Below are positions 5,251 through 24,648 of a stretch of DNA of 25,625 nucleotides, one piece after another. Position numbers and translations under genes: made by a program. The DNA comes from a virus: the IMG/VR virus record IMGVR_UViG_3300022689_000407, positions 1 through 25,625 of that record; one strand, written 5' to 3'. Position 1 is the stretch's first letter. Each line of letters starts with the position of its first letter. The notes under the pieces were generated by a model that saw nothing but the letters and a program-made list of their open reading frames with translations, was not told where the DNA came from and did no database searches.

Positions 5251-5688
5251 TCAGCCCTCCCAATCCCAGTGGGTGCGAAAAACGATGTGGTCGAAGCCGG
5301 CACCGCCGCCGGCACCGGCGAACTTGCCCGAGACGAAATCCAACGGCCGGACCGTGGCGGCGTCCGGCGTCCAGCCGGCCAGGGCCGTCACAACAGCGCT
5401 GCGCAGTTGGGTCAGCGCGTCACGCACCGCGCCGCCGTGGCGGTCGCCGCCGTGACGCGCCACCACGATCACCGACACCGTGTCGGTCAGGTCCTGGACG
5501 TGGCTGCCGCCCATCACGTCGTCGGCCTTGGCTTCCCAGCCGAGCGAGACCACGAACGCCGCCGGCAGCCGCTGCGGCAGCACGCCCTTGTCGGTCAGCG
5601 ACGCAAACTCCAAGGCGTCGTGCACCGAACGCAAGGCGCTGACCTGCTCCGTCAGACGCGTCTGCACGGCGGCCGCCAGGTCGATCAT
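5251..5688 (-). CDS. Tail terminator / gp37-like connector protein, 145 aa
   Basis: MIDLAAAVQTRLTEQVSALRSV, a short helical start, is followed by an alpha/beta body (LPAAFVVSLGWEAKADD, TDTVSVIVVARHGGD, AVRDALTQLRSAVVTALAGW) like the small tail terminator or Mu gp37-type proteins that cap the tail tube or join it to the head. Its ATG overlaps the stop of the gpG-like gene by 4 bp (ATGA), so it is probably translationally coupled. The position between gpG and tail tube fits. The exact family is not certain. Confidence 0.65.
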   Translation of the reverse strand: MIDLAAAVQTRLTEQVSALRSVHDALEFASLTDKGVLPQRLPAAFVVSLGWEAKADDVMGGSHVQDLTDTVSVIVVARHGGDRHGGAVRDALTQLRSAVVTALAGWTPDAATVRPLDFVSGKFAGAGGGAGFDHIVFRTHWDWEG

Positions 5689-6176
5689 GGCGTGTCCCCC
5701 GTGCGCAGGTAGTGCACCAGCGTCTCGCGGATGCCGGCGACGTCGTCATCATCCAGACCGAGATAGGGCCGCGCCGGCATGGTCACTTTCTGGGTCACGA
5801 CCATCTCGCCGCTGGCGAGCCGGAACACCAACGCCCGCGCATGAACGGGGCGGATGACGCCGCCGAACTGGTGGATCGCCGAATAGATCAGATTCGAGCC
5901 GACGAAGACGACGTCGCGCCGGGCATCCACGGCCAGGCTGTTCTTGAGCGCCCCGGTGTCCTGCAGCGTCTTGCCGCCGGTGATTTGCGCACGCAGAGAC
6001 GGCGGCCACGGGTTGCCGTCCGGTCCGGCTTCGCGGTCGAAACGCAAGCGGGTGCCGGCCTCGATTGCTGCGCCGATGCTCTCCATCACCGGCGTCATGT
6101 CGTCGAGCCGGCGCGACAGCGCGGTCAGGAAATGGTCGAAGCGGCGCGTGTCCGCTGTGACGCGCAGCGCAACCAT
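5685..6176 (-). CDS. Virion morphogenesis protein (Mu gpG-like), 163 aa
   Basis: From ATG 6176: MVALRVTADTRRFDHFLTAL, then MESIGAAIEAGTRLRFDREAG, PDGNPWPPSLRAQITGGKTLQDTGALKNSL and IHQFGGVIRPVHARAL. The blocks 'F..E..PDG..W', 'L..TG.L..S' and 'IHQFGG' are hallmarks of the phage virion morphogenesis family (Mu gpG, P2 gpS), involved in tail completion and head-tail joining. Start and upstream stop overlap as TGATG. A longer reading of this frame reaching back to 6731 is a high-GC extension that runs over the DUF1320 gene and is rejected. Confidence 0.88.
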   Translation of the reverse strand: MVALRVTADTRRFDHFLTALSRRLDDMTPVMESIGAAIEAGTRLRFDREAGPDGNPWPPSLRAQITGGKTLQDTGALKNSLAVDARRDVVFVGSNLIYSAIHQFGGVIRPVHARALVFRLASGEMVVTQKVTMPARPYLGLDDDDVAGIRETLVHYLRTGDTP

Positions 6177-6607
6177 CACCAGCCATCCAGGCTGGTGCGG
6201 GTGAACACCCGCGCTGGACCGCTCGAGCGCACCGTGCCGCCCGTCGTCGGCGCGTCGGCGCCGGAGCTTGGCAGAGTGAGTTTCACGGTGCCCTTGGCCA
6301 CCATTTCCAGCCACCGGAGCTGGGCTTTGTGGTCTTCGGCGACCTTGTCGGGGACGTGCTCCACATGGAGCCGGTAATAGGCGATGATCGCCGTCGCGCC
6401 GCGCAGGGCCCGTGGCACCTGAACCAGCGGCAGGACATAGTCGGCCGCGGCCAGATAGGAGTCGACCACGGCGGTAGCGTCCTCGAGCGCCTGGTCGATG
6501 ATCGTCTGGTCGATCGCGCCCGTCGGCGTTTCGGCGCGGTCGGTCAACTCGACCAAGCGCTCGGTCGAGGCGAACTTCAGCAGATCGTCCAGGGTCGCGT
6601 AGGCCAT
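6176..6607 (-). CDS. DUF1320 family protein (Mu gp36-like), 143 aa
   Basis: MAYATLDDLLKFASTERLVELTDR, then a helical body AIDQTIIDQALEDATAVVDSYLAAADYVLPL, VPRALRGATAIIAYYRLHVEHVP. This is the typical order of DUF1320 proteins: an N-terminal 'Y.T.DDL', then 'ID......AL.DA...ID.YL' and a second 'L......IA.Y.L'. In Mu-like phages the gene follows the major head gene (after gp35) and is thought to act at the head-tail connector. It follows a 505-bp repeat-rich gap where gp35 would normally be. The ribosome site is weak. Confidence 0.88.
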   Translation of the reverse strand: MAYATLDDLLKFASTERLVELTDRAETPTGAIDQTIIDQALEDATAVVDSYLAAADYVLPLVQVPRALRGATAIIAYYRLHVEHVPDKVAEDHKAQLRWLEMVAKGTVKLTLPSSGADAPTTGGTVRSSGPARVFTRTSLDGW

Positions 6608-6647
6608 GGTGCAGCTCGCCAGAGTGACCGCTCTTCCGAGCGTCCTT

Positions 6648-6702
6648 AGTCCGGGGTTGGGCCAAGTTGTTGGAAGGGGGCCGGCCGGACCAACCCCAAG
6701 CC
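6648..6702 (+). repeat. Variant family A element with internal insertion
   Basis: Left part AGTCCGGGGTTGGGCC and right part GGCCGGACCAACCCC flank an extra segment (about 6664-6678) not found in other copies. It is fused directly to a family B hairpin on its right. Intergenic. Confidence 0.75.
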
Positions 6703-6775
6703 CGGGAGCGCGTGCATCTTACACGCGCCATTGCTTGCCGATGTGCGGGCTGGAAGCCCGCGTGATTGAATTGGC

Positions 6776-7112: not shown

Positions 7113-8009
7113 TCAGATATCCAGCCACTGCGTGACCAGTAGGTCCGTCCGGTTGCGCAAAATATTACTCTCGCCGGCAGCGTTGCGCTCCCTCTCCAAG
7201 AGTTCGCGCGCCTTCTGCTCCAGGCTCGGCGGCACCACCAGGAGCGTCGGGCGGATGTTCAGCGGCTTGCCGCTGTCGCCCTTGACCGATTGCATGGCCT
7301 GGATCGCGGCCCAGAAATTGGTGTCGTCCAGCGTTTGCTTGGACGCATAGGCGAGTTGCCACAAGCCGACGCCGACATTCAGCCTGGCATCGGTGCCGTA
7401 GACATATTGCTTGCGGAAGAAGGTGTTCTCGTCCGTCTCTCGGTCGAGACTGACGAAATTGTAGTCCTTCCGCATCTGCACGATGATCGGCTTGACCATC
7501 TTCGACGCATCGATCAGGTACCAGGCCGTGCCCGAACCGCCGCCGGTGTTGGATTGCGTCTTCGCCTTGCCGGCCCGGTCGACATACGGATGGGCGCTGC
7601 CGAAGAACGGCGTGCCGTCGTAGCAGGTGGTATCGAACCCGGCCTTGAGCAGCTCGAACACCAGCTCGTCGCGGTGGCATTTGGCGTCCATGCCGAGCTG
7701 GGAAAACAGCGGCGCGTAGACACCGAACTGATCGTCCTCGATGTCCTCGCGGTTGACGCCGATGGTGTTCTCGAAAGACCGGTTCCTGATCGTAAAGTCG
7801 TGCGCCTGCAGGTTCTGAATGACGCGCTCGCCGAGCCATTCGCGGAAGCGCGTGCTCTGCCCCAGCCAGCCATAGGTCTCCTGCTTGGTCGATGACTGCA
7901 CCGTCATCGCCACGCGCTCGTACTGCGAAGGCGCCTGCTCGAAGGCCTGGTTGAAGACCGTCCGGAAGCCGGTATAGATGGTCAGCAGATTGGCTTGATT
8001 GATGATCAT
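7113..8009 (-). CDS. Major head protein (Mu gpT-like), 298 aa
   Basis: The gene encodes MIINQANLLTIYTGFRTVFNQAFEQAPSQY, then MTVQSSTKQETYGWLGQSTRFREWLGER and the block NLQAHDFTIRNRSFENTIGVNREDIEDDQFGVY. These are the signature segments of the Mu-like major head subunit gpT, which builds the capsid shell. Other conserved-looking pieces are PFFGSAHP and FYGTDARLNVG-like YVYGTDARLNVGVGLWQLAYAS. Length agrees with the family (about 300). ATG overlaps the upstream stop (ATGA), so it is coupled to the decoration-like gene. Confidence 0.95.
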   Translation of the reverse strand: MIINQANLLTIYTGFRTVFNQAFEQAPSQYERVAMTVQSSTKQETYGWLGQSTRFREWLGERVIQNLQAHDFTIRNRSFENTIGVNREDIEDDQFGVYAPLFSQLGMDAKCHRDELVFELLKAGFDTTCYDGTPFFGSAHPYVDRAGKAKTQSNTGGGSGTAWYLIDASKMVKPIIVQMRKDYNFVSLDRETDENTFFRKQYVYGTDARLNVGVGLWQLAYASKQTLDDTNFWAAIQAMQSVKGDSGKPLNIRPTLLVVPPSLEQKARELLERERNAAGESNILRNRTDLLVTQWLDI

Positions 8010-10953: not shown

Positions 10954-12594
10954 TCACCGAAAATCCTCGCCCAGCCGGCCGGCGACGCGCACCGCGAAGC
11001 CCAGATTGCGCAACGCCGCGGCGACCGGGGCGGCGTCCGGCCGATCCTCGCCGGCCAGCCGGATCAGCCGATCGACCAGATCATGGAACCCCGACGCGTC
11101 GGCCACCGCCTGCAGGATCGCCTCCTCCATGGCGCGGCCGATCTCCGGACCGTCGGCCAGAAGGGCACCGACCAAATCCTCCATGTCGGTGGTCTCGCGC
11201 CCGTGCAACGCAAGGGCTGGTGTGTCGACCCCGGCTCGAGACCCTAGATGCTGGGTCGCATCGGCCCGGTTGCGCGTGCCGTTGGGCCCGCCATAGCCGC
11301 CCACATTCCTGGGATCGCCGAACGGGTCGGTGGCGCTGTTCGGCACCGTCACCGGCGCCACCAGAACTTCCTGGTCGGGGTCCGGCTCGGGCAGGCCAAG
11401 GCGGTCGCGGATATCCGACATGCCGACCTTGAGGCCCATGGGCACAAGCTGCGTCAAGCTCGGCACCAGCGTCGCCATGTCCAGGCTCTCCGGCCGGCCG
11501 ATCACGATGCGTGGAAAGCCGGCTGCCGGCTCGCCGAAATTCAAGAGGATCATCGGGCGCACCAGGTCCCGATTGAGCGTCGCGGCCAAAGCCTTGGCAT
11601 CGGCGCGCTCGATATCCTCGCGGATTTCCTGGTGTTCCTGTCCGACGGCGTGACCGCCGGAGATGGCGTCGGTGGTGGCGGTCTGGCCCAGCACCGCCTT
11701 GGAGATCTGCTGGTCGATGTAACTGCAGAGCGCGCGGTAGAGGTCGCTGGAGACCTGAGTCGACTGCGCGTTGACGAACTCGACCACCATATCCGCGGAC
11801 ACGACCGCGCACGCGTCGGTGCCGAGATTTTGCACCGCCTGGAACAGCTTCTCCCGCTCCTCATCGCTCGCGCCCGCCGGATACTTGCCCAGGCGCAGCG
11901 GATGACCGAAGGTCTCGGCCAGCATGACCCAGTCCTTCACGGTGAAGGACTTGAACAGCCAGGCCCACCCCGCCAGACGCGCCAGGCCGCCGCGCACCGG
12001 GATGCCCGACTTGAGGGACGGTGTGTGCACGATGAACTTGCCCGGCTGCAGATCGAGCGGCTGCCCCTGGTGGTCGCGCAGCTTGGGCGTCGTCATGTCG
12101 GCGCGGTCGAACAGGAACCAGCGCGGGTCGCGCCATTCCAGCCGGTCCGGCAGCCACTGGCCGGCCTGGAAGCGCCAGAGGATCTCGGTGAACGAAATGC
12201 CCTTGGCCAGGGCGTCCAGGATGTCGACCACCTCCTGCTCGACCGTGTCGCGCGCCAGGAAGGCGCGGACCAAATCGGCGTTGCGCACGTCGTCGGTGTT
12301 GTCCGACGCGCTTTCGACCGACAGATCGAGTTGTGCCACCGCCAGCTTCCGGGTTCTAATCACGCTGGCATAATGCCAGTCCTTTTCCTCCAGGTCCTCC
12401 GCCAGCTCATAATACCGGATCGGATCATTGTCCTCCGCTTCCCGGAGTATCCGCTCCAATTTCTGGGGCGTCAGGCCCTTGGACGGGTGTCCCGACCAGG
12501 CCTGGCGCACGCCGGTCAGGCTCGGCCCCGCAACCGCCGTGGTGAGGTGCTTCCGAGTTGGAAACGGCCGTCCGTACTGATCGACCAGTGCCAT
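10954..12594 (-). CDS. Portal protein (DUF935, Mu gp29-like), 546 aa
   Basis: Start ATG 12594 has AAAGG 7 nt upstream. The sequence MALVDQYGRPFP, RQAWSGHPSKGLTPQKLERILREAEDNDPIRYYELAEDLEEKDWHYASVIRTRKLAV is a textbook DUF935 opening. Further blocks are LAKGISFTEILW, WLPDRLEWRDPRWFLFD, GGLARLAGWAWLFKSFTVKDWVMLAETFGHPLRLGKYP and AVLGQTATTDAISGGHAVGQEH. Portals form the dodecameric ring that DNA passes through. Length is as usual for the family. It stands immediately downstream of the large terminase, separated by a 212-bp repeat cluster, and ends 4 bp before a family B hairpin. Confidence 0.96.
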   Translation of the reverse strand: MALVDQYGRPFPTRKHLTTAVAGPSLTGVRQAWSGHPSKGLTPQKLERILREAEDNDPIRYYELAEDLEEKDWHYASVIRTRKLAVAQLDLSVESASDNTDDVRNADLVRAFLARDTVEQEVVDILDALAKGISFTEILWRFQAGQWLPDRLEWRDPRWFLFDRADMTTPKLRDHQGQPLDLQPGKFIVHTPSLKSGIPVRGGLARLAGWAWLFKSFTVKDWVMLAETFGHPLRLGKYPAGASDEEREKLFQAVQNLGTDACAVVSADMVVEFVNAQSTQVSSDLYRALCSYIDQQISKAVLGQTATTDAISGGHAVGQEHQEIREDIERADAKALAATLNRDLVRPMILLNFGEPAAGFPRIVIGRPESLDMATLVPSLTQLVPMGLKVGMSDIRDRLGLPEPDPDQEVLVAPVTVPNSATDPFGDPRNVGGYGGPNGTRNRADATQHLGSRAGVDTPALALHGRETTDMEDLVGALLADGPEIGRAMEEAILQAVADASGFHDLVDRLIRLAGEDRPDAAPVAAALRNLGFAVRVAGRLGEDFR

Positions 12595-12806: not shown

Positions 12807-14495
12807 CTACCAACTCCCCGTCCAGCGTTTGAGCCGGCCGCCCCACGTCCCCAGCGCCGACGCATGGTCCCGTCCGCCGCCGCCGCGGTAGCCGACACCG
12901 GCGCGCGCCCCCATGGCCAGGGTCCACAGCATCTCGAGCGCGTCCGGGCCGTCGTCGTGATCGGCCGCAGGATAGTGGCGGAGCTGCTCGCACAGCGTCG
13001 TCTGGTCGGCGCGCACCCGGATCAATCCGTTGGCCACGTGCGGCTGCAGCCCCTCGATGCGGAGCTGCTTGTCTTTGTGCGGCTCCACCGACACCACCGG
13101 CACCGGGATTTTCTTGGCGGCGCTGCGTTTGACCAGCTCGCTCGCGAAGAAGGCCTGGAACTGCACGGTCTCGATCGCCCAGCGCTGGCACCGGTAGCGC
13201 AATTGCAGATCGATGATGTCCTCGATCAGCGCGTCGGGCAGGCGCCGGCGGATCAGCGCTTCGACCACGTCGAGCACGCCGGTCTCACGATCGAGGCCAC
13301 CCACCAGCGTCGCCGACGGGTCGCGACCCTTGTTGGCCTTGCCCAGGCTGGGATCACAGGCGCCGAAAAAGAGCCAGTCGCGCGACGGCGCGACCCAAAA
13401 CTGGAGACCGCCGAAAACCGCTTCGCTAACATTCACAGGATCGTTCATGAACTCGCTGTCGAAGGCCCGCTGCCCGACTTCGACCCGCTTTTTCATCAGC
13501 GCCAGGATCGGCCGCACCTCCGGCCACGACACCACCGCGCCTTCATCCATCGCTGCCTTGTTGGCGGCGTAGAAGCCGTCGGCGACGGCGGCCCCCTGGT
13601 TGCGCAGCAGCTCTTCCCAGCGCTCCCACAGATCCATGCGCGCGGGCCAAACCTCGATCGCCCGGAACGTGATCGCCGTCCACAGCGGATGGCGCAGCTT
13701 GCGCGCCAGGACGCTGTCGTAATGCAGGATGGTGCCGACATAGACGATGTCGCATTTGGCGCCGGCGCCGCCCAGACCGGCGACGGCGGTGTCGACCCAG
13801 CGGTCCAGCTTGTCGCGCTGGTCGGGCGTGCGCACATTGTCGTCGTTCTCGATGTCGTCGAGCACGACCAGGTCCGGCCGGTGCGGACCGTGGCGCAGGC
13901 CGCGCAGGCGCTTGCCGGAGCCGAGCGCCATCACACGTGCGCCGCCGGCGGTGACGATATCCGCTTCTTGCCACGTCCGGGGTTGGCCCGGCCGGCCGGA
14001 CGCACTTAAAGCTGTCGCGCCGGCGCCGACCTCTTTGCGGAAATCCACCGCCAGGCGCGGGTTCGCCTCCAGCTCGGCTTTGATCGCCGCGAGCGTCAGC
14101 GTGGCCTGGTGCAGCGCGTCCTGGATCAGGACGATGAATTTCTTGCGCCGGCCCATGAGCAGCCAGAGCGGAAACAGGACCGCGCATAGAGTCGACTTGG
14201 CTTCGCCGCGCGGAGCGGCTATGGCGTCGCGCTCGGCCTCGCTCGAGGCCGCCAACGCCGGCAAGCGCTCATAGAGATAGAGGTGCAGCTTCGACGGCGG
14301 ACCGGTGATGTAGTGCGGAAAGTAAGTCCGGCAGAAGGCCTGGAAATCGGCGAGCGTCTCTTTGCGCCGCTTTTGCACCGACGCCTTGTCGTCGGGCAGG
14401 CCGGAGACGTCGGCCTCGATGCGTTGACGCAAGGCCGCGACGTGCTCGCGTACGACGGCCGTGAACGCGCGCGGGCTGAGCGGGTCCGGGATCAT
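12807..14495 (-). CDS. Large terminase subunit (Mu gp28-like), 562 aa
   Basis: Packaging motor ATPase-nuclease. From ATG 14495 (MIPDPLSPRAFTAVV), motifs are Walker A-like APRGEAKST (about 94-102), Walker B LVVLDDIEND (about 209-218), and the RNase H-type nuclease part starting WLFFGACDPSLGK with acidic residues later at LDVVEALIRRR and WAIETVQFQAFF. The GSGKRLRGLRHG stretch (about 192-203) fits the family. Residues about 163-175 (LSASGRPGQPRT) are encoded by a decayed family A element. A GTG at 14525 is also in frame but lies inside an interspersed repeat. It stops 14 bp before a family B hairpin. Confidence 0.95.
   Translation of the reverse strand: MIPDPLSPRAFTAVVREHVAALRQRIEADVSGLPDDKASVQKRRKETLADFQAFCRTYFPHYITGPPSKLHLYLYERLPALAASSEAERDAIAAPRGEAKSTLCAVLFPLWLLMGRRKKFIVLIQDALHQATLTLAAIKAELEANPRLAVDFRKEVGAGATALSASGRPGQPRTWQEADIVTAGGARVMALGSGKRLRGLRHGPHRPDLVVLDDIENDDNVRTPDQRDKLDRWVDTAVAGLGGAGAKCDIVYVGTILHYDSVLARKLRHPLWTAITFRAIEVWPARMDLWERWEELLRNQGAAVADGFYAANKAAMDEGAVVSWPEVRPILALMKKRVEVGQRAFDSEFMNDPVNVSEAVFGGLQFWVAPSRDWLFFGACDPSLGKANKGRDPSATLVGGLDRETGVLDVVEALIRRRLPDALIEDIIDLQLRYRCQRWAIETVQFQAFFASELVKRSAAKKIPVPVVSVEPHKDKQLRIEGLQPHVANGLIRVRADQTTLCEQLRHYPAADHDDGPDALEMLWTLAMGARAGVGYRGGGGRDHASALGTWGGRLKRWTGSW
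13974..14012 (+). repeat. Degenerate family A element inside the large terminase gene
   Basis: CGTCCGGGGTTGGCCCGGCC followed by GGCCGGACGCACTTAAAGC aligns to the family A consensus with several changes, mostly in the right arm. On the coding strand it is read as ASGRPGQPRT, the same frame as copies 2-4 of the tape measure gene. It lies between Walker A and Walker B, in frame. Confidence 0.75.
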
Positions 14496-14519
14496 GGCAG
14501 CACCGCGCCTGTTAAACTC

Positions 14520-14658
14520 AGCCACAGATGGACGCAGATGGACGCAGATAAAACAAAAGCTGAAACGGCCGACAAGGCGACGGCCTGAAGACTCCTGGTT
14601 TCGTCTCGGTCATCGGAGCATCTTTTCTATCTGTGTTCATCTGAGTTCATCTGTGGCT
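14520..14658. repeat. Interspersed element with 30-bp inverted ends (MITE-like)
   Basis: Left arm at 14520-14549 (AGCCACAGATGGACGCAGAT...) and right arm at 14629-14658 (...TTCATCTGTGGCT) are inverted repeats matching at 26 of 30 positions, around a 79-bp centre. Each arm is built from a repeated ~10-bp unit (CAGATGGACG). This resembles the widespread 'CACAGATG' intergenic repeats of many bacterial genomes. It separates the small and large terminase genes and carries no gene. Confidence 0.85.
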
Positions 14659-16000: not shown

Positions 16001-16450
16001 TCAGGGCACATCCTTAAAGAAGCGGTGGTTCTTGATCCTGTGCGCCGGCGTCAGCCCGCGGGCCCATTTCGGCCGTGCGCCCGGCGCCAGATAGTGGGTG
16101 CAGCCCGGCACCGGGTCGGCGATCCGCCCGGCGCAGACATCGAGCGCGACGTACCAGCAATCGACGAACAGCGGATCGTCGAGACTGGCTGCGAGCATCT
16201 TCTCCCGGTTGGGATCGCTTTCCAGCCAGCACGAGAACTGATAGTTCGCCTGGCAGACATGGGCGACCGTATCGCCCCACCAGGTCGTCGTGCCGGCCTG
16301 TGCCAGCGCGACGCGGTGGCGGATCACCCACGCCACGGCGATCAGCCCGCGCCGACCTTCACCGCGCGCCTCGCCCCACAGCGTCTGGGCGAGCACCTCG
16401 AGGTCCCGCCCGGTGACGCCGGGCAGCGGCTCGGCTGGGCGTGCGCTCAT
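16001..16450 (-). CDS. Cell wall hydrolase, SleB-like endolysin, 149 aa
   Basis: The block VLAQTLWGEARGEGRRGLIAVAWVIRHRV (residues 20-48) is the Hydrolase_2/SleB active-site region, with the likely catalytic Glu in WGEARGE (E27). Later are ANYQFSCWLE and PVPGCTHYLAPGARPKWA, also typical. The enzyme would cleave peptidoglycan glycan strands for lysis. It has no signal peptide, so export probably needs the holin encoded just before it. The ATG overlaps the holin-candidate stop (ATGA). Confidence 0.93.
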   Translation of the reverse strand: MSARPAEPLPGVTGRDLEVLAQTLWGEARGEGRRGLIAVAWVIRHRVALAQAGTTTWWGDTVAHVCQANYQFSCWLESDPNREKMLAASLDDPLFVDCWYVALDVCAGRIADPVPGCTHYLAPGARPKWARGLTPAHRIKNHRFFKDVP

Positions 16451-16955: not shown

Positions 16956-17054
16956 CTAGGCATCGTCTTCGACCGCCTCCTCCAGACGCTGCGCTTCCGA
17001 AGGACCGCCAACCAACCCGGTATGCGGAACGACAGGTTCGACCACGAGTCTCAA
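16956..17054 (-). CDS. Tiny ORF or gene remnant after the helicase, about 32 aa
   Basis: A TTG overlapping the helicase stop (TTGA) opens a frame that reads RLVVEPVVPHTGLVGG, then PSEAQRLEEAVEDDA, and stops with TAG exactly at the edge of a family B hairpin. A GTG at 17045 is an alternative start. The end is acidic and gene-like, and the hairpin next to it is placed as after real phage genes. It may be the C-terminal remnant of a phage gene disrupted when the defence cassette arrived, or a very small protein. No homologue is recognised. Confidence 0.35.
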   Translation of the reverse strand: MRLVVEPVVPHTGLVGGPSEAQRLEEAVEDDA

Positions 17055-20000
17055 TTAGCAATAATGGTGCGCATTTTTGCGAGGACGGAGGCATAGTCAT
17101 CGGAAGTTTCAAAGCTAAGCCGATCACCAATTTCCACTTCAAACGCCCGGTGAAGTTGAACGCGACCCAGTATGCCCTTCCTGGTTTCTGCGAAGGCGAT
17201 TTTGGCGGGCGTGTCGAAGCCACGCCTCACGGCCGTATGTAAGCATCCAATGACGGCTGGCGCAGTCAGGCTGTTGTCCGCATCTGCGAGCACATCTTGT
17301 GCTGTTTTCGCCACCAATCCAATGACATAGGTGATCCCCATCGGCACCAAGCGTGTGATCAGTCGTCTTGCTCTCGGGCATTCAAGTTGTTTCTTGTCCT
17401 TGGGATCGCCACCAAGGGCACGCTCAATGTCAATGAGCTGCTTTCCTGAAATCCATGCGAGCAGCCCTGGGCACAACGTGCTGATGGCATCTCCAGAGAA
17501 CGGTGCATTCTCTTTCCGCCCAATCGTCTTGAGGATTTCGCGACTCTCGCGTTGTAGGAGTGCTGACCGGGATTGCTCGTCTTCAGCCAACCACGAACAG
17601 GTCCAGGAAACCCATTCCGCGATTGAGACGGGAAGGGCCTGACGGGTTGCCTCCAGTCGATTGCGGAGGCTTGTCAGGACGGTGACCGATGCGCCACTTT
17701 GAGCAGCTAGTTCTAGGACGGACAGGTCCCCACACTCGCTCATCCGCTGGTCTAAAGCTGTCTTCAACGCCGCGACCTTGCCGTCGAATGCTGCAAGAGT
17801 CTCTCGCCTCAAAGCCATGAAGGCTGCAAACGATCTTTCGGTTGAAAAACGCGTTCTTGTCCCCGCCTCGCCCTCCTCCAATGCGGCCACGGTCGAGTAT
17901 CGATTTAACGCATACTCCGTATTTGGATCGCCGCCCCCCGGCTCACTGATGCGATCCAATATAACCTCTAGCGGATCAATAATATCGATGCACCGGTCGT
18001 CGTCGGGGAGAATTGAGCGTAGTTTTCTCTCTGCATCCGGTGCCAATGCCCTAGCATTCTTAAATTCAAGGATTTCTTCCGGAACGAGAAGCACCACTCC
18101 ATTCGCGAGGTGTCCAGCACGTCCTGCGCGCGCCGCCGCATTCAATATCTCATGCGCCCTAAGTGGCTGCCTAGACGAGTTTCTCCTGCGCGGTCCCTCT
18201 CCAAATGTACGATCATCATCATCCCCGTGTTCATCCTCTTCCATGCGCATGTCGCTTGCAAGAATAGCCAGGTGGGCAGGCAAATTGAGACCTTGAGCAA
18301 GCGTCGGGGTCGCCACAATGACCTTCGCCCCGTCTTTCCGGCGAAACATGCTTTGCGAGAGCTCCCGTTCAAGCTTAAGCATTCCCGCATGATGCGCGAC
18401 AGCTGATGCGGGACCTGTCAGTAACGAATGCTTACGCTCACCCAATTCAACGTCGAGGGCCTGCCATCGAGCTTCTTCGTCCGCGTTTGCTGTTACTGAA
18501 TCCTCAAGGGCGCTCGCAATATTTCTTGCCGTTGATACAGCGTGACCCTTATTATTGACGAAGATAATACATTTTGCGCCCACTTCCGCAGATTTCACTG
18601 CAATCTGGGCCGATACTTTGTTGACATTTCCAGTCAAATGAACGTTTCTCCTTCTTACGCTCCCAGAAAGCTCGACTTTGTGGCCGAGCAAAGGTGTAAT
18701 TCTAAAATCTATAGACCGGTGGGGCAACCAATTGTGGTGTAACCCGAATAACGCGAATGGCTTTACAAGCAACTCGCGTTTCGCGGCGGCTCCAAGTGGT
18801 TTTGGGGTTTTTCTTCTTGCGGTATCTATGTCTTGTTGTTTTCGAGTTGCGGCACGCCTGACAACAGCAGCGGTATCTATGTCTCGTTGTACTCGATCTG
18901 CGGCACGCCTGACCTCATCGATTGATCTCGCTTCGTAAACCACAACCCCCCGCGCCTGCCGACTGGGTTTCCAGAGGGCATCAACGAAAACGCAGTGTCG
19001 CCCTGTCAAGTGCTCGATCCAGTTTGCGAAGTCCTGACCATTCTTGATCATCGCCGACAGAAAGAGAAAGTCAGAGTCCGGTGCGACGCTATTGAAGGCA
19101 AGCACGCAGAACATACCGTCCAGGGAGCGGCGAAGCCCGGATTCTGCGCTGAGGAGGTGACATTCATCAAATACCAGTAGACCAACTTCAGCAAATATCT
19201 CGGGCGCATAGGAGAGCAACGCCAAGCAATGCTCCGGTGTCATGACCTCAATCTGCCGTAGTGTAGATCCGACGGCGAACATTTGATCGAAGTCGCTTGA
19301 TACGATTGACCCGAGCAAATCCTCAGGAAATATCTTCTGAAGATCGTCCTTGAGTTGGTCCACGAGAGCATGCGTCGGTGCGATGAAGATTACGCTTTTA
19401 TTTTGACCAAGGACGCTGGCGATCTTGAGGCAGGAGACCGTGGTCTTGCCGGCACCGGTTGGCAGCACCACCACGGCGGACGTTCCAGTATGGTGAAATC
19501 GCTTCTCGACGGCGGCACCGTGATTGGGCCAAAGGAACGGTGCTTCCGCTGCGCGATGCCGGAGCCATTTGCGCCAGAATCGTCCGTCGGTCCCGCCTGG
19601 AGGATCAATCTTCGTCACGGCTGCCTGCGCCGTCGCGTCGTATGCGGCAAGGAGCAGTGCCGCAAGGTGACGCGGACCTGGATAGGTCGTCAGCAACGGG
19701 GCCGTTTCAGTAGACTGGTACCAGGAGGTCGAGAGTTCCAGGACGCGTGAGAACGCCGCCCGTGCCGACGCGAAACGATCTCTGACTGTCTCGGGGGCTC
19801 GACGAGATAAGACTTCCGCGGCAAACAGCTCGACGCCAGTTAGAAGGGCCTCGAATAAAGCTGTGGTAGCCCGCGCCTCCAGGTCTTCTGGTGTGCGAAA
19901 TTCTTGCGTCCGCTTCCGCGCTCGCGAAAGAATTCGCCGCAACTTTCCGGAGGTGAAGTCCTGGACCCTCTCGGCAAGGAGTGTTGCGACGAATTCTTGC

Positions 20001-20437
20001 TGCCGATCGACAATTCGGATGCGTTGGGCGGCCTCATGGGCATCCGCATATTGCTCGGCAGCAAGGAAGAGCACCGCCGCTGAGAGACTGGGGTCTACCC
20101 GATCACGACTCAGAATAGGCTTCTCTATGCCGTCTTCAGTGGCTTGAGCCGCCTGCGCCAAGATTTGCTGCGCCGTTCCGGCGACGAACGCGGAGGCTCG
20201 ACGAACCTTAGGATCGTCGTGAATCGACGTGATGAGCTCGTAGGTATCCGCTATCCGTTCGAGAGGCCACTCATCCTCGCCGTCCATCTCTTCTGGGCTG
20301 GCGGCAGTCGCTCCACGAAGCCGTCGCGCAACAAGCTCAGCATAGTGCGCAGTCAGCCGCTCGGGTAGGGTGTGCGGGTCGAGGCCAGCCAATCCAGGGG
20401 CGGATCGCAGAAAAGCTGCTGTGTCAGGGTCGAACAT
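17051..20437 (-). CDS. SF2 DExH helicase of a Hachiman/AbpAB-like defence pair, 1128 aa
   Basis: A large helicase with an N-terminal ~310-residue helical region of no recognised family. It then has Walker A VLPTGAGKTT (about 324-333), motif Ia FIAPTHALVDQL, motif II DECH (424-427), motif III SAM (461-463, normally SAT), HHAGM (682-686), motif V ATPTLAQGLNLPA (709-721) and motif VI ARAGRAG (769-775). The HHAGM and motif V/VI style is Ski2/Hel308-like, as described for Hachiman HamB and AbpB. A 350-residue C-terminal region follows. A 17-residue tandem repeat lies at about 506-542. The ATG overlaps the nuclease stop (TGATG). Base composition is less GC-rich than the phage genes, supporting separate acquisition. 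The precise system name is an inference. Confidence 0.85.
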   Translation of the reverse strand: MFDPDTAAFLRSAPGLAGLDPHTLPERLTAHYAELVARRLRGATAASPEEMDGEDEWPLERIADTYELITSIHDDPKVRRASAFVAGTAQQILAQAAQATEDGIEKPILSRDRVDPSLSAAVLFLAAEQYADAHEAAQRIRIVDRQQEFVATLLAERVQDFTSGKLRRILSRARKRTQEFRTPEDLEARATTALFEALLTGVELFAAEVLSRRAPETVRDRFASARAAFSRVLELSTSWYQSTETAPLLTTYPGPRHLAALLLAAYDATAQAAVTKIDPPGGTDGRFWRKWLRHRAAEAPFLWPNHGAAVEKRFHHTGTSAVVVLPTGAGKTTVSCLKIASVLGQNKSVIFIAPTHALVDQLKDDLQKIFPEDLLGSIVSSDFDQMFAVGSTLRQIEVMTPEHCLALLSYAPEIFAEVGLLVFDECHLLSAESGLRRSLDGMFCVLAFNSVAPDSDFLFLSAMIKNGQDFANWIEHLTGRHCVFVDALWKPSRQARGVVVYEARSIDEVRRAADRVQRDIDTAAVVRRAATRKQQDIDTARRKTPKPLGAAAKRELLVKPFALFGLHHNWLPHRSIDFRITPLLGHKVELSGSVRRRNVHLTGNVNKVSAQIAVKSAEVGAKCIIFVNNKGHAVSTARNIASALEDSVTANADEEARWQALDVELGERKHSLLTGPASAVAHHAGMLKLERELSQSMFRRKDGAKVIVATPTLAQGLNLPAHLAILASDMRMEEDEHGDDDDRTFGEGPRRRNSSRQPLRAHEILNAAARAGRAGHLANGVVLLVPEEILEFKNARALAPDAERKLRSILPDDDRCIDIIDPLEVILDRISEPGGGDPNTEYALNRYSTVAALEEGEAGTRTRFSTERSFAAFMALRRETLAAFDGKVAALKTALDQRMSECGDLSVLELAAQSGASVTVLTSLRNRLEATRQALPVSIAEWVSWTCSWLAEDEQSRSALLQRESREILKTIGRKENAPFSGDAISTLCPGLLAWISGKQLIDIERALGGDPKDKKQLECPRARRLITRLVPMGITYVIGLVAKTAQDVLADADNSLTAPAVIGCLHTAVRRGFDTPAKIAFAETRKGILGRVQLHRAFEVEIGDRLSFETSDDYASVLAKMRTIIAN
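18819..18920 (-). repeat. 51-bp tandem duplication inside the helicase gene
   Basis: Two adjacent 51-bp units (18819-18869 and 18870-18920) share GCGGTATCTATGTCT and TGCGGCACGCCTGAC at the same offset. They encode 17-residue repeats with RRAADRVQRDIDTA and RRAATRKQQDIDTA. The frame is kept. It lies between motif III and the second RecA domain, where length changes may be tolerated. Confidence 0.88.
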
Positions 20438-21330
20438 CAGTCAGCGTCCGCTGGGAGGCTATCGATATAGGCTATGGCCCGAGATGCAAGTTGGTCGAAC
20501 CAAGCACGTAGATCGTTGGAGGTTACTAAAGTAGCTGCAATTCGGCGATTGGCCGCAATTCCCTCTAGCTTCTCATACCCACGGAACAAGTCCTTCCTGT
20601 ACCTGGATTGCTCGTATTTTGCCGTTACTGTTAAGCTCGCACGATAAGCTCTATACGTCTTCTGAAGAGAACGACTAGCCGCTTCAGTTGCCATGGTACC
20701 CTTAAGACCCGCCTTCTCTAACAATGCGGCAGCTGCGTCAAGTAACTCAGTTGCCCTTATTCCCGCATGATATTTTTCGAACTCCGGTATAACTTTTCGC
20801 GCGAAAGTATCTCGTGGGTGTTTCGTGCACTTGTCTTCTAAGATAGTAAGCTGCCTTACTTGACATGCTTTTGCATCAAACTCAATTGACAGGCCATCGA
20901 GTCCTTGGGTTGTGGGGCTTAGATGAGGTGCTTTGGAGAGAACCTCCCCATTTGCCATCAGCTGGGTGGCGACCCACGAAATTGCCTCAAAGATCAATCC
21001 ATCCCTCTGGTCTCTCCGCTTCTCTTCTTGGTCCTTTGTTCCTGCCGAAACCGTGAGCTTCCGCCTCGCTGCGCTCTTATAATCCGCCCCGACTACAGCC
21101 GGGTGAAATGGTTTGAGTTCATTTATAATTTCAGCCGCATGCGAAGCTTGCCCCATCGCGATGATTGCCACGATCCGTGCCAGCTGGTCGAGGTCTGCAA
21201 CAGTCCATCTGCTGACTGTGCAGTGCTGGTTGTCTTCAACAGGCTCGATTGCCAGCGGACACGAAACCTTTTGCGCTAATCGGGCAGACAGAATGTCTAC
21301 GTTATCGCTGCTGCGGCCAGGTGAGCTCAT
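20437..21330 (-). CDS. PD-(D/E)xK nuclease-like partner of the helicase (HamA/AbpA-like), 297 aa
   Basis: The chosen start ATG 21330 (MSSPGRSSDNVDILSARLAQ) has GGGG 7 nt upstream; the frame stays open to an ATG at 21468, whose first 46 residues look non-conserved. The centre has GLIFEAISWVATQL (E115), TTQGLDGLSIEFDAKA (D145) and LTILEDKCTKHPRD with E165-D-K167. E...D...ExK is the arrangement of a restriction-like nuclease fold. A helical C-terminal half follows. Paired with a large SF2 helicase, it matches the Hachiman (HamA with HamB) or AbpA-AbpB plan, where the nuclease is restrained by the helicase until phage DNA is sensed. Family naming is by architecture, not by search. Confidence 0.7.
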   Translation of the reverse strand: MSSPGRSSDNVDILSARLAQKVSCPLAIEPVEDNQHCTVSRWTVADLDQLARIVAIIAMGQASHAAEIINELKPFHPAVVGADYKSAARRKLTVSAGTKDQEEKRRDQRDGLIFEAISWVATQLMANGEVLSKAPHLSPTTQGLDGLSIEFDAKACQVRQLTILEDKCTKHPRDTFARKVIPEFEKYHAGIRATELLDAAAALLEKAGLKGTMATEAASRSLQKTYRAYRASLTVTAKYEQSRYRKDLFRGYEKLEGIAANRRIAATLVTSNDLRAWFDQLASRAIAYIDSLPADAD

Positions 21331-21760: not shown

Positions 21761-22258
21761 TCACTCGCACCAGCTTCCCCGCCGGCCGCCGTCATAGGGC
21801 CGCGCCAATTGGGCAAACAGAAGCTGGCCGCCGAGATCGCCGCCGGCTTGGCAATACACCTCGGCGACGACGCGCCCGGCCCAGGTGCCGCGCTGGACGG
21901 CGCGCAGCTCGACCCGCTGCCCGCACATCTCCGTCCACACCCGCGTGAAGGCGGTCGCCCGGTCTGCCAACGCCCGTTCGCGCGCGCATTGCGGACGCCG
22001 CGGCTCCGGCGTGTCCACGCCGGCGACGCGCACGGTCACCTCTAGCGTCTGACCCAGCCACAGATGTGCACGGACGACGGTCCGGGGTTGGCTTGGCCGG
22101 CCGGACCAACCCCAAGCCATCGTATCGCCGTCGATGACGCGCAGCACGTCGGCGGCGATGGTGCTCGCAAGGGTCTCCTCGGCGCTGGCCGGCACCGGCG
22201 CCAGAGCCGGCGCCACAGCAAGAGACGCCGTCAGCGCCAGCAGGGCCGCCGGTCTCAC
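21761..22258 (-). CDS. Secreted thermonuclease-like protein with in-gene insertion, 165 aa
   Basis: The GTG start at 22258 overlaps the upstream stop (GTGA). Residues 1-26 (RPAALLALTASLAVAPALAPVPASA) form a signal peptide. The mature part carries SNase motifs: DGDT (43-46), R77 and D82-T-P-E85 in TVRVAGVDTPE, and R129 in GRVVAEVY. Spacing R77-D82-E85 equals R35-D40-E43 of staphylococcal nuclease. A family A palindrome adds AWGWSGRPSQPRT directly after DGDT, in the strand bearing metal ligands, so activity may be reduced or lost. Similar nucleases occur in Mu-like phages after the Mor region. An upstream extension to 22492 is a shadow of the two preceding genes. Confidence 0.88.
   Translation of the reverse strand: MRPAALLALTASLAVAPALAPVPASAEETLASTIAADVLRVIDGDTMAWGWSGRPSQPRTVVRAHLWLGQTLEVTVRVAGVDTPEPRRPQCARERALADRATAFTRVWTEMCGQRVELRAVQRGTWAGRVVAEVYCQAGGDLGGQLLFAQLARPYDGGRRGSWCE
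22079..22118 (+). repeat. Family A palindromic element in the thermonuclease gene
   Basis: A 40-bp copy identical to tape measure copies 2-4, in the same orientation and the same translated frame. It is inserted between the codons for DGDTM and VVRAHLWL. Removing 42 bp would give DGDTVVRAHLWLGQ, a normal-looking family sequence. Confidence 0.9.
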
Positions 22259-22521
22259 GCCGCCCCCTTTCGCCCGAGCAGGGCGAAACGCTCCACGCGC
22301 CGGACCAGTTCTTCCGCCTCCGCTCGCCGGCTTTCGGCAAGGTAGCGGCGGATGTTGCGCAGCTCGGTCGGGAACGGCGCCACGAGATCCCGGCACAGAA
22401 GCACCAAGCCCATGTCTGGCGGTGCACCGCACCTCAGACATCGGTAGCGTTTGCGGTGCGCTGTTGCAATCCGTTCGCGGTCGGTCAGCCATGCCGGTTT
22501 TTCGGCGCCGCGCTTAGCCAT
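22255..22521 (-). CDS. Small CxxC protein of unknown function, 88 aa
   Basis: MAKRGAEKPAWLTDRERIATAHRKRYRCLRCGAPPDMGLVLLCRDLVAPFPTELRNI has CLRC and a third Cys (43), followed by a charged helix (RRYLAESRRAEAEELVRRVERFALL). It overlaps the end of the Mor-like gene by 8 bp and the thermonuclease start by 3 bp, so it lies in a tightly packed operon and is probably real. A small metal site is possible, but only three Cys are clear. No family recognised. Confidence 0.65.
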   Translation of the reverse strand: MAKRGAEKPAWLTDRERIATAHRKRYRCLRCGAPPDMGLVLLCRDLVAPFPTELRNIRRYLAESRRAEAEELVRRVERFALLGRKGAA

Positions 22522-23023
22522 CGATGCCGGCCTCCTCGAACAAAGGCGCGGGGCGCGGCGGCTTGCTCTGCCGGCGCCATTTCACCATCGGTAGCTGCGG
22601 CTGGGTCCGGCCGGGCTGCACCCCTTCGCACACCTTGCGCAGGGTCCGTTCCGCTGTGCGAATGCGGAACCGCCGGCACAGATGCTGACGAATTTGCGGG
22701 TAGGAAAAGCCAGCGGCGCGCATCTGCCGCGCCACCGCATAGACCAGCGTGCTGTCGCCGGTCGGGATCGGGCAGCGCTCCGGCACCTGGCCGTGCAGGC
22801 GCCGCACCAGCTCCTCGGCGATCTGGTCGCCGAGCACGGCGCGTAACTGCGAGCGCGCCCCCAGGGTCTCGGGGATGATCACCATGCCGCCGCCGAAGGC
22901 ATCGAGGAAACGCAGGGTTAGGCGCGTGCCCAGGATTTCGTGAATCTCGTGCAGGACGCCCGGCCAAGCGACCCACCGGTCGGCAGCCCACAGATAGCCT
23001 GGTTTTTCGGGCATCCGAACCAT
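22514..23023 (-). CDS. mor: Mor-family middle operon transcription activator, 169 aa
   Basis: The block AWPGVLHEIHEILGTRLTLRFLDAFGGGMVIIPE (about residues 19-51) is the conserved dimerisation region of Mor/C proteins ('F.G...YIP'), and residues 92-130 (STLVYAVARQMRAAGFSYPQIRQHLCRRFRIRTAERTLRKV) are the helix-turn-helix that binds DNA. In Mu, Mor turns on the middle promoter and leads to late gene expression. The protein has a 35-residue basic tail after the HTH, longer than Mu Mor. It lies 3 bp after gemA, as in other Mu-like phages. AGAGG precedes the ATG at 23023. Confidence 0.92.
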   Translation of the reverse strand: MVRMPEKPGYLWAADRWVAWPGVLHEIHEILGTRLTLRFLDAFGGGMVIIPETLGARSQLRAVLGDQIAEELVRRLHGQVPERCPIPTGDSTLVYAVARQMRAAGFSYPQIRQHLCRRFRIRTAERTLRKVCEGVQPGRTQPQLPMVKWRRQSKPPRPAPLFEEAGIDG

Positions 23024-23026
23024 CTG

Positions 23027-23692
23027 TCAGTGCCTCTCGTTTTCCATCGCAGCGAGTTTCCTCAGCGCTTCGCGGGCCTCGCCCGGCGCCAATTGCGAGA
23101 CGCCCCGGTAATTCCCGGTAACCGCTTTCTGCAGCCAGATGTTCAGGGCCGCGCGCCGCGGGTTGTAAATCACACCCGCCGCGGCGAGGCGCGTCCACAT
23201 CTCCAGAACCTCGTGTTGTGCCGCGCGCGCGGTATCCGTCTCCCACAGCCGCCAGCTCTCGACCCGTCCCTCGGGGCCGAGGATTTCGGCGCGCTTGGCC
23301 CAGGCCTTCAGCGCTTCGATCACGCGCGTCCAAGGCGCGTTGTCGAGCGCGCCGACCTCCTGCCCGGTCTGCCGGCGAATGAAGGCGTCCCGCGCCCCGT
23401 CGCGGCGGTCTTCCACCGCGCCGGCGCGCCACAGCTCGATCCACATGCCCCGGCACATCCGGTAGGTCTGGCTGTCGCGGTAGCGCGGTCGGTGGCCACC
23501 ACCAAAGGCGTTCAGCCGGGCGATCAGCGCGCGCCGCTGGTGCGCATCCAGATCGGCCGACGAAACCGTGGCGCCGCGAGAGAGCCCGGCGATGATCGCG
23601 CGGTAACTGTCGTCGTCGACCGCGTGCTGCTTCTTCAGCGCGTGGATTTTCGCCAGGTCCGCCCGCCGCTGATCGGTCGTTGCTCGTGCCAT
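23027..23692 (-). CDS. gemA: GemA/gp16 family regulatory protein (DUF1018), 221 aa
   Basis: ATG 23692 is chosen because GGGAGG lies 6 nt before it; a TTG six bases upstream would abut the ribosome site. The text LAKIHALKKQHAVDDDSYRAIIAGLSRGATVSSADLDAHQRRALIARLNAFGG is the DUF1018 N-terminus ('IHIA...L.LDD..YR..L...G..S...L...E...L...L...G'). Then SQTYRMCRGMWIELWRAGAVEDRRDGARDAFIRRQTG and the end with ALKAWAKR. In Mu, GemA affects host gene expression and DNA supercoiling. The gene pair gemA-mor is diagnostic for Mu-like phages. Confidence 0.92.
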   Translation of the reverse strand: MARATTDQRRADLAKIHALKKQHAVDDDSYRAIIAGLSRGATVSSADLDAHQRRALIARLNAFGGGHRPRYRDSQTYRMCRGMWIELWRAGAVEDRRDGARDAFIRRQTGQEVGALDNAPWTRVIEALKAWAKRAEILGPEGRVESWRLWETDTARAAQHEVLEMWTRLAAAGVIYNPRRAALNIWLQKAVTGNYRGVSQLAPGEAREALRKLAAMENERH

Positions 23693-23715
23693 GGTCAACC
23701 TCCCGCGAGGCCACT

Positions 23716-23741
23716 GGGGGTGCGTGCATCTTGCACGCGCC
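23716..23741 (+). repeat. Family B hairpin repeat after the gam stop codon
   Basis: Core TGCGTGCATCTTGCACGCG with inverted arms. It begins directly beyond the gam stop (23742-23744) and lies in the 49-bp gap before gemA. Confidence 0.85.
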
Positions 23742-24272
23742 TCACTCCGCCAACTCGACGCCAGTTTCGGCCGGCGTCACATAGAACCCTTCACCGCCGC
23801 GGCCGATCGACACGCCAGGGACGCCGCGGGCCACCTCCGGCTCCTTCAGCATGGCCTCCTTGTCCGGCTCTTCCTTGGTGCGAATGAAGCGGCGCAGGCG
23901 CCGCTCTTTGAGCGCCGCGAGCACATCCTCGACCTTCTTCAGGCTCACCTTCATTGGCTTCTGCCGCCAGGCCACCGTGCCGGCCGCCAGCTTGGCGGTC
24001 TTGGTCTGGCCGTCCTTGGTCAACACGGCGCGGTTCGCTGCCGCCCACACCGACAGCCCTTTCAGGGCCCGCAGGATCGACTCTTTGATCGGCTTGGCCT
24101 GTGCTTCCGCGCTGGCCTTGGCCGCCTCGACGCTTTCCTGCATCGCCTGTTCAATCAGCGCCAACTGACGCTGATCACGACCCAGCCGCCGGATCATTTC
24201 GTTGGCTTCGTCCATCGACTGCGGCACCGGCACGGTCTCAGCCTCGGTGGCCGCGGCTCTCCGTCTCGCCAT
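23742..24272 (-). CDS. gam: Host-nuclease inhibitor Gam (Mu Gam-like), 176 aa
   Basis: Start ATG 24272 (MARRRAAATEAETVPVPQS), with GGGAG 7 nt upstream. The sequence MDEANEMIRRLGRDQRQLALIEQAMQESVEAAKASAEAQAKPI, ILRALKGLSVWAAANRAVLTKDGQTKTAKLAAGTVAWRQKPMKVSLKK and VLAALKERRLRRFIRTKEEPDKEAMLKEPEVARGVPGVSI match Mu Gam in order and length (about 174). Gam is a Ku-like dimer that binds DNA ends and blocks RecBCD. The gene overlaps its upstream neighbour by 35 bp and ends at a family B hairpin. Confidence 0.95.
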   Translation of the reverse strand: MARRRAAATEAETVPVPQSMDEANEMIRRLGRDQRQLALIEQAMQESVEAAKASAEAQAKPIKESILRALKGLSVWAAANRAVLTKDGQTKTAKLAAGTVAWRQKPMKVSLKKVEDVLAALKERRLRRFIRTKEEPDKEAMLKEPEVARGVPGVSIGRGGEGFYVTPAETGVELAE

Positions 24273-24648
24273 CGCTCTTCTCCCATCGGGTTTTGAGTTC
24301 GCTCTCGGCCCAGGCGGCGAGCGCGACCAGCGCCGTCGCCAGGATCGTTTCGGTGCGGGTGATCCCGCCGGTGTGCTGGCCGCCAAGTGCGCCGCGCCCC
24401 TCTGCACGCGCCGCGCTCAGCGACACCAGGCAATCGATCGTGTTGCCATCCGCGGCCAGCGCCAGGCCGTAGGCGACGCCGGCGCCATCCCGCACCAGCA
24501 GGACCTCTCGGTTGCAGCGCGCCAGCGGGTCCCGGCAGGATTCGCTGTGCAGCACCGTCAGCGCGCCATGGTCGTGACCGAGATGGTCGCGCACCCACAA
24601 CGCCTTGCGGTCGGCGCGCCAGTGCGCGCTCAAGAGCAAGTCGGTCAA
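24238..24648 (-). CDS. Unknown early-region protein, 136 aa
   Basis: I choose TTG 24648, overlapping the upstream TGA, because GGAGG lies 7 nt before it. The protein (LTDLLLSAHWRADRKALWVRDHLGHDHGALTVLHSESC...) continues through REVLLVRDGAGVAYGLALAADGNTIDCLVSLSAA and a Thr/Ala-rich helix TRTETILATALVALAAWAESELKTRWEKSDGE. No family recognised. Its place between the small early genes and gam, with overlaps on both sides, supports a real gene. The frame remains open to 24927, but that part runs over the previous gene. Confidence 0.6.
   Translation of the reverse strand: MTDLLLSAHWRADRKALWVRDHLGHDHGALTVLHSESCRDPLARCNREVLLVRDGAGVAYGLALAADGNTIDCLVSLSAARAEGRGALGGQHTGGITRTETILATALVALAAWAESELKTRWEKSDGETESRGHRG

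What the first reader, a model, noticed from the sequence alone, without database searches (positions are those of the whole stretch)
17051..21330. Nuclease-helicase anti-phage cassette carried by a Mu-like prophage
A PD-(D/E)xK-type protein overlaps a 1128-residue Ski2-like helicase by TGATG; both have composition unlike the surrounding phage genes, and lie between the nuclease and lysis genes, a place where cargo does not disturb phage modules. The architecture is like Hachiman (HamAB) and AbpAB. The long N-terminal region (310 residues) and C-terminal region (350 residues) of the helicase are not recognised, so it may be a divergent subtype.
Basis: partly seen in the sequence, partly recalled or inferred. 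Interest (0 to 1): 0.75.

Follow-up and report, generated by a model that had tools for sequence, protein, structure and literature searches.

The report
Divergent Hachiman-like nuclease-helicase pair in phage
A phage related to Mu carries a two-gene cassette, a DNA-cutting enzyme and a DNA motor protein, that looks like a distant, so far unlabelled branch of the bacterial Hachiman immune system, probably protecting the host of the phage from rival phages.

Summary
A 297-aa protein (20437-21330, minus) overlaps a 1128-aa Ski2-like helicase (17051-20437, minus) by TGATG. Both genes are low in GC (51.5 and 55.9% against 68.2% elsewhere) and lie between a nuclease-like gene and lysis genes of a Mu-like phage. 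The interpretation largely holds. No HamA, AbpA or other model in Pfam, PADLOC, NCBIfam or PHROGs hits the small protein, yet its AlphaFold2 model matches E. coli HamA over its full length (Z 12.9; AbpA-type HamA domain 12.7; next unrelated nuclease 6.8). The putative catalytic D145/E165/K167 is invariant in all 66 relatives that have letters there. The helicase model's best match is HamB, including the N-terminal helical domain that Hel308 lacks. The pair is a conserved unit: 57 of 59 helicase relatives have the small gene directly upstream (the other 2 are cut by contig ends), and the two proteins diverge in step (r = 0.94). The helicases form their own clade beside known HamB groups. I read it as a HamAB-type genome-integrity-sensing abortive defence carried as cargo, a new variant of Hachiman that HamA models do not detect. 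Defence itself is inferred. Against: helicase core sequence alone fits Hel308 about as well, and the tree does not exclude that grouping (p = 0.28).

The parts
20437..21330 (-). HamA-like PD-(D/E)xK nuclease gene, 297 aa from ATG at 21330 (the ORF can also start at 21468, 343 aa)
   Evidence: ORF; homologues; AF2 model pLDDT 92.4, pTM 0.89; best structural matches HamA 8vx9_A Z 12.9 and 8zue_A Z 12.7
20896..20898 (-). D145, first putative metal-binding residue
   Evidence: present in 66 of 67 sequences, the 67th truncated; aligned with D of HamA by hhalign
20830..20838 (-). E165-x-K167, putative catalytic ExK
   Evidence: present in 66 of 67, the 67th truncated; aligned with HamA ExK
17051..20437 (-). 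HamB-like Ski2-type SF2 helicase gene, 1128 aa
   Evidence: PADLOC PDC-M23B 4.5e-29, HamB1 7.7e-29; Pfam DEAD 2.9e-18; Foldseek HamB 8vxa 4.9e-27; VIA-align 8vxa_A Z 28.3, 894 aligned
19625..20437 (-). N-terminal all-helical region (residues 1-271), counterpart of the HamB NAH domain that binds HamA
   Evidence: model 10-1128 aligns to HamB 9-1063 (894 residues), whereas Hel308 aligns only from residue 272 (621 residues); NAH described in PMC12278908
19439..19462 (-). helicase motif I PTGAGKTT (residues 326-333)
   Evidence: P326 T327 G328 G330 K331 invariant in 42 sequences
19157..19168 (-). helicase motif II DECH (residues 424-427)
   Evidence: D424 E425 H427 invariant in 42 sequences
20435..20439 (-). 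TGATG stop-start overlap joining the two genes
   Evidence: sequence

Best explanation
The cassette encodes a HamAB-type complex from a branch of the Hachiman radiation that HamA models do not recognise, carried as lysogen-benefit cargo by a Mu-like phage. SHOWN here by sequence and predicted structure: a PD-(D/E)xK protein with the full HamA fold and an invariant D..ExK; a Ski2-type helicase with intact motifs and a HamB-like N-terminal helical domain; strict pairing and co-divergence; foreign GC. INFERRED from Hachiman (PMC12278908): the small protein docks on the helicase's N-terminal domain and is held inactive; the helicase tracks DNA, and on meeting aberrant DNA (ends, ssDNA, replication intermediates of an invading phage) hydrolyses ATP, moves that domain and activates the nuclease; this degrades phage and host DNA, so the lysogen dies or stalls before the invader multiplies.
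For: Model of the small protein: HamA Z 12.9 over 216 of 259 residues, AbpA-type HamA domain Z 12.7, a second HamA entry Z 11.3, then a drop to 6.8 for generic nucleases. Helicase model: the three HamB entries are Foldseek ranks 1-3 (4.9e-27 to 1.3e-23) ahead of Hel308 (4.7e-19); VIA-align 894 residues aligned to HamB from residue 10, 621 to Hel308 from residue 272. Triad in 66 of 67, the 67th truncated. Pairing 57 of 59. Distance correlation r = 0.94 over 47 loci, largest of 1000 permutations 0.12. 17 family helicases are one clade (100/99), beside canonical HamB (85/87) and inside the HamB/PDC-M23B side of the tree (89/83). Weak profile signal to HamA in register with the triad, above 150 of 150 column shuffles, though narrowly (24.0 against 23.2). 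GC contrast. 0 of 53 Mu-like terminase relatives carry either gene.
Against: No HamA/DUF1837 model hits any of 9 members, nor any of 14 whole records at E <= 1. hhalign to HamA gives probability 2.5%, E 0.018. Foldseek alone found no structure at E <= 0.001 for the small protein; the HamA match comes from VIA-align's second look. Helicase core: Hel308 models score as well as HamB, VIA Z values of HamB (28.3, 24.6) and Hel308 (26.8) overlap, and grouping with Hel308 is not rejected (p-AU 0.279). The complex was not modelled. The neighbour scan for defence genes had no control and no per-protein count. I know of no anti-phage assay of this family.
Confidence: 0.8

Rival explanations
1. It is a phage or plasmid DNA-repair/recombination pair: a Hel308-like helicase working with a nuclease on the element's own replication intermediates, not immunity.
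For: NCBIfam's best matches are archaeal Hel308-type helicases (1.6e-30); PHROG calls it a branch migration helicase (3e-23); Hel308 grouping not rejected.
Against: Hel308 matches begin at residue 272 and leave the N-terminal domain unexplained, while HamB matches it; the partner has the HamA fold; the pair is sporadic (4 of 398 Pseudomonadota genomes) and absent from 53 of 53 Mu-like terminase relatives, unlike a core replication function.
Confidence: 0.09
2. Same HamAB-like machine, but its main target is not lytic phages through genome-integrity sensing; it excludes plasmids or superinfecting relatives by recognising a particular DNA structure or modification.
For: Relatives lie on conjugative plasmids (6 of 10 records typed conjugative) and in phages (L012-L014), so element-against-element conflict is plausible; the sensing step is not readable from sequence.
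Against: The closest characterised machines, HamAB and AbpAB, respond to DNA damage or ssDNA-binding proteins and act broadly (PMC12278908, PMC10732053, passages read).
Confidence: 0.08
3. The small protein is a generic PD-(D/E)xK nuclease whose resemblance to HamA is convergent.
For: No sequence model links it to HamA; the hhalign signal is marginal.
Against: Z 11.3-12.9 over 206-219 residues for three HamA/AbpA-type entries against 6.8 for the next nuclease; partner helicase independently closest to HamB.
Confidence: 0.03

Closest known systems
Hachiman (HamAB), E. coli ECOR31, PDB 8VX9/8VXA/8VXY, PMC12278908
   Same: Two genes, nuclease then Ski2-like helicase; HamA fold with D..ExK; helicase with N-terminal helical (NAH) domain; similar sizes
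   Different: Small protein not recognised by DUF1837/HamA models; residue before the ExK glutamate is not Gly in the 9 members shown; structural identity 11% (HamA) and 16-17% (HamB); VIA-align's aligned range ends at HamB residue 1061-1063, so the C-terminal end of E. coli HamB has no aligned counterpart
AbpAB (E. coli), PMC10732053; the 531-residue chain 8zue_A is of AbpA-like size (the equation is mine)
   Same: HamA-like domain plus Ski2-like helicase; match to residues 259-537 of 8zue_A, Z 12.7
   Different: No Cap4-like N-terminal nuclease domain here; the HamA-like site keeps an intact D-E-K set, whereas AbpA's is described as inactive (PMC12278908)
PADLOC candidate PDC-M23
   Same: Best PADLOC hit of the helicase (4.5e-29); PDC-M23A models weakly hit a known HamA1-type protein (2e-4), so it is probably another HamAB-like pair
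   Different: The small protein hits no PDC-M23A model (0 of 9 members at E <= 1); PDC-M23B lies elsewhere in the tree (one sequence, long branch)
Hel308 / Ski2 / Brr2 helicases
   Same: RecA1-RecA2 core and C-terminal domains
   Different: Hel308 shows no counterpart of the N-terminal 271 residues; a linked nuclease of this kind is not known to me for them (recalled)

Membership tests
Hachiman (HamAB) | HamA recognised by the DUF1837/HamA sequence models | tested here: not met
   PF08878 0 of 14 records at E <= 1; PADLOC 0 of 9 members at E <= 1, although its HamA1 set does reach divergent groups such as L104-L106
Hachiman (HamAB) | HamA fold in the partner | tested here: met
   AF2 model to 8vx9_A Z 12.9, rmsd 3.8, 216 of 259
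Hachiman (HamAB) | D..ExK active site | tested here: met
   D145, E165, K167 in 66 of 67, the 67th truncated; in register with HamA. Position-by-position structural superposition was not available
Hachiman (HamAB) | canonical Gly before the ExK Glu (D-GEXK, PMC12799240) | tested here: not met
   L, F, C, S or Y in place of G in the 9 members; note that L103, a PF08878 and HamA1 hit, also has LESK
Hachiman (HamAB) | Ski2-like helicase with intact motifs | tested here: met
   HamB1 7.7e-29; motifs invariant in 42
Hachiman (HamAB) | N-terminal helical (NAH) domain, stated to be in all HamBs and absent from close Ski2 relatives | tested here: met
   HamB aligned from model residue 10-12, Hel308 from 272; helical secondary structure
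Hachiman (HamAB) | helicase falls in the HamB clade | tested here: inconclusive
   with canonical HamB 85/87 and all HamB/M23B 89/83; grouping with Hel308 not rejected, p-AU 0.279
Hachiman (HamAB) | 1:1 complex; DNA-damage-triggered DNA clearance; phage protection | not testable with these tools
   no complex prediction or assay available
AbpAB | Cap4-like N-terminal nuclease domain fused to a HamA domain | tested here: not met
   297 aa, no Pfam hit; 216-219 residues of the model are matched to the HamA domain
Hachiman type II (HamC) / HamMAB | third gene (DUF3223) or protease fused to HamA with an upstream MBL nuclease | tested here: not met
   neighbours are an SNase-like gene and a lysis-region gene of unknown family; no protease hit on the small protein
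PDC-M23 | PDC-M23A partner | tested here: not met
   0 of 9 members at E <= 1
Hel308 | NCBIfam curated cut-off | tested here: not met
   82 bits to helicase_Hel308 against a cut-off of 1200; 106 to PRK02362 against 887

The most novel reading that the evidence does not exclude
A sequence-orphan branch of Hachiman, spread across several phyla by plasmids and temperate phages, in which the HamA-HamB pair has diverged beyond recognition together. Carried by a transposing (Mu-like) phage whose own replication makes nicked and branched DNA of the kind Hachiman is thought to sense, it must be tuned or shielded (for example by the phage's Gam end-binding protein, encoded about 2.4 kb upstream) so that the carrier's own lytic cycle does not trigger it.
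Probability: 0.2. Interest if true: 0.75.

Novelty: new variant of a known kind. Interest (0 to 1): 0.52.

Why it matters
Hachiman is counted in genomes by HamA and HamB models. A conserved nuclease-helicase family in which every HamA-side protein tested is invisible to those models means Hachiman-type immunity is undercounted: the family profile rang in 4 of 398 sampled Pseudomonadota genomes, against 10 of 299 for Pfam HamA. It gives a second sequence set for finding which features of the HamA-HamB interface are essential, and a phage-borne copy in which self-tolerance can be tested.

Tried and rejected
Single-sequence genome and viral scans with the small protein found no relatives; the helicase alignment did. 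Phage collection: no match for the small protein, one weak match for the helicase. Foldseek against PDB and the viral library gave nothing significant for the small protein. A profile of 9 members found no convincing relative in PDB sequences (2 chance-level matches, E 0.37 and 0.96). hhalign to HamA is marginal and I do not rest on it. Defence-island test: 132 neighbours of 35 loci scanned (up to two per side, 150-700 aa; 3 of 38 loci left out, at least 2 of them as duplicates); hits include restriction-modification, pAgo, CBASS, AbiE and Fic-type models, and Pfam phage integrase in 5, but the tool gives no count of proteins with a hit and I ran no control, so I claim nothing from it. A clean-insertion argument fails: Gam-to-terminase is about 9.2 kb here and about 6.0-6.2 kb in the 6 of 53 relatives where both genes were found, a difference smaller than the cassette, so other genes differ too. 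Promoter and terminator scan unremarkable. No Rfam match.

Rows dropped: of 80 loci (L074-L094, E >= 2e-10) were treated as generic helicases. L034 and L067 had no room upstream for the partner. L043 is the same plasmid as L005. L025 (near-copy of L023) and L056 (truncated) were left out of A3. Of 10 plasmid records, the helicase is beside the small gene in 9 (two of them, L002 and L003, with a broken helicase); in L007 the small gene is broken and I saw no helicase ORF.

Full report
WHAT IS THERE. The window is a whole viral record of 25,625 bases with Mu-like genes: Gam at 23742-24407, large terminase at 12807-14525, Mu portal at 10954-12594, major head protein at 7113-8009 and tape measure at its start, all on the minus strand. 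Between an SNase-like endonuclease gene (21761-22492) and the lysis region (endolysin 16001-16450; 16447-16833 matches a PHROG of unknown function) lie two genes on the same strand. The first, 20437-21330 (297 aa; the ORF could start at 21468), ends in TGATG, which starts the second, 17051-20437, 1128 aa. Their GC is 51.5% and 55.9% against 68.2% outside, and third-position GC 50.0 and 56.6 against 80.6-86.0 for Gam, portal and terminase; two other genes of the window are also lower, 5685-6731 at 69.1 and 22485-23729 at 52.5.

THE PAIR IS A REAL, CONSERVED UNIT. tblastn of the small protein finds 10 plasmid records, 9 with the helicase alongside. A scan of the genome collection (one genome for each of 84,980 species) with the helicase alignment kept 80 loci: 59 with E <= 2e-67, then a gap to 2e-10. 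In 57 of the 59 a homologue of the small gene ends at the helicase start; the other two are cut by the contig end. Record titles are mostly Alphaproteobacteria, with Gamma- and Betaproteobacteria and contigs labelled Myxococcota, Planctomycetota, acidobacterial, Cyanobacteria and Bacteroidota; many are metagenome bins, so single outlying labels may be contamination. Pairwise distances of the two proteins correlate at r = 0.94 over 47 loci (1000 permutations, maximum 0.12). In 398 sampled Pseudomonadota genomes the family profile rings in 4, one of them the centre of the sample, which was already known to carry it. Three other viral contigs carry the pair, and their neighbours include phage genes such as Bet, exonuclease, single-strand binding, tape measure and CI-like repressor matches. 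None of 53 Mu-like terminase relatives carries either gene; only 6 of these show both Gam and terminase and so surely span the interval.

WHAT THE PROTEINS ARE. By sequence the small protein matches nothing in PADLOC, Pfam, NCBIfam or PHROGs, nor do its 8 aligned relatives in PADLOC (E <= 1); in Pfam those give only stray E > 0.1 hits. Pfam HamA finds nothing in 14 records carrying the family. An alignment of 59 members has R109, D110, G143, D145, E165, K167, R263 and R275 invariant; across 67 sequences the D, E and K occur in 66, the other being truncated. The AlphaFold2 model is confident (pLDDT 92.4, pTM 0.89). Foldseek gave no significant hit, but VIA-align of the top 1000 chains put E. 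coli HamA first (8vx9_A, Z 12.9, rmsd 3.8, 216 aligned of 259), the C-terminal part of another E. coli Hachiman structure second (8zue_A, Z 12.7) and a second HamA entry third (Z 11.3), with generic nucleases (CdiA-CT, FokI, McrC) at 6.8 and below. That ranking, a gap of more than 4 Z units over about 210 residues, is the main evidence that it is HamA-like.

The helicase hits PADLOC PDC-M23B (4.5e-29) and HamB1 (7.7e-29) about equally, and Hel308 models as well, so its core sequence does not decide. Its model (pLDDT 86.5, pTM 0.88) does: the three HamB entries are Foldseek's first three (4.9e-27 to 1.3e-23), ahead of Hel308 at 4.7e-19, and HamB aligns over 894-911 residues from model residue 10-12, whereas Hel308 aligns over 621 from residue 272. 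[quoted passage not shown] In a maximum-likelihood tree of the helicase core, 17 family members form one clade (100/99), next to canonical HamB (85/87) and on the HamB/PDC-M23B side against Hel308 (89/83); forcing them with Hel308 is not rejected (p-AU 0.279).

MECHANISM. From HamAB (PMC12278908) and AbpAB (PMC10732053; passages read) the expected working is: the nuclease is held by the helicase's N-terminal domain; the helicase samples DNA and, on aberrant DNA, uses ATP to shift that domain and free the nuclease; DNA is degraded without distinction and the infected cell is sacrificed. What is shown here is the anatomy; the sensing, activation and outcome are inferred. As phage cargo it would profit the lysogen, hence the prophage, against competing phages. 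Prophages carrying anti-phage systems in variable spots are established (PMC9122126, start of abstract seen in the listing).

MEMBERSHIP AND NOVELTY. It works like Hachiman by architecture and fold, but it fails the sequence test by which HamA is defined (DUF1837/HamA models) and lacks the glycine of the canonical D-GEXK motif (PMC12799240, passages), so I file it as a new variant beside Hachiman, not as a plain member. It is not AbpAB (no Cap4-like domain, intact site), not HamMAB or type II (PMC8565338, passages), and its partner is not PDC-M23A. Eight literature searches showed no paper describing this family, judged from titles, abstract starts and the passages read; the family has no name to search for, the library holds open-licence papers only, and the papers' supplements could not be searched.

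LIMITS. No complex prediction was available; the structural match for the small protein rests on one aligner's second look at Foldseek candidates; the defence-island scan lacked a control; no assay of this family is known to me.

Noticed in passing
18819-18913 (-), helicase about residues 509-540: A 44-nt direct repeat, 51 nt start to start (89% identical), inside the helicase gene: a recent in-frame duplication of 17 codons in a region that is shorter in the relatives aligned.
   Followed up: partly
L171 (G008:C12:5500-10500), 639-2090, 2204-3070 and 3060 onward: A class I short pAgo gene (PADLOC pAgo_I, 1.5e-211) directly upstream of a divergent HamA-type gene (PDLC00161, 5.6e-108) and a long ORF that I placed with HamB-type helicases in the tree (L174): an argonaute beside a HamAB-like pair, in the genome that also carries the present family (L020).
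   Followed up: partly
L167 6532-7758 (-): A reverse transcriptase gene (PADLOC RT_III-A, 2e-147) lies next to a divergent HamA1/HamB1 pair.
   Followed up: partly
L105 1381-2157 (-) and PADLOC PDLC04527-04529: A HamA1-type protein also hits the PDC-M23A models weakly (2e-4 to 1e-3), and PDC-M23B is the window helicase's best PADLOC hit; the candidate system PDC-M23 is probably another HamAB-like branch.
   Followed up: no
L002 and L003 (plasmids of Shewanella and Rhizobium): In the two plasmid relatives whose small protein is closest to the window's, the helicase gene is broken into several frames while the small gene is intact.
   Followed up: no
22485-23729 (-): A 414-aa ORF between Gam and the SNase-like gene has no Pfam, PHROGs or PADLOC match and an unusual third-position GC of 52.5%; possibly another cargo gene or a wrongly chosen frame.
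   Followed up: no
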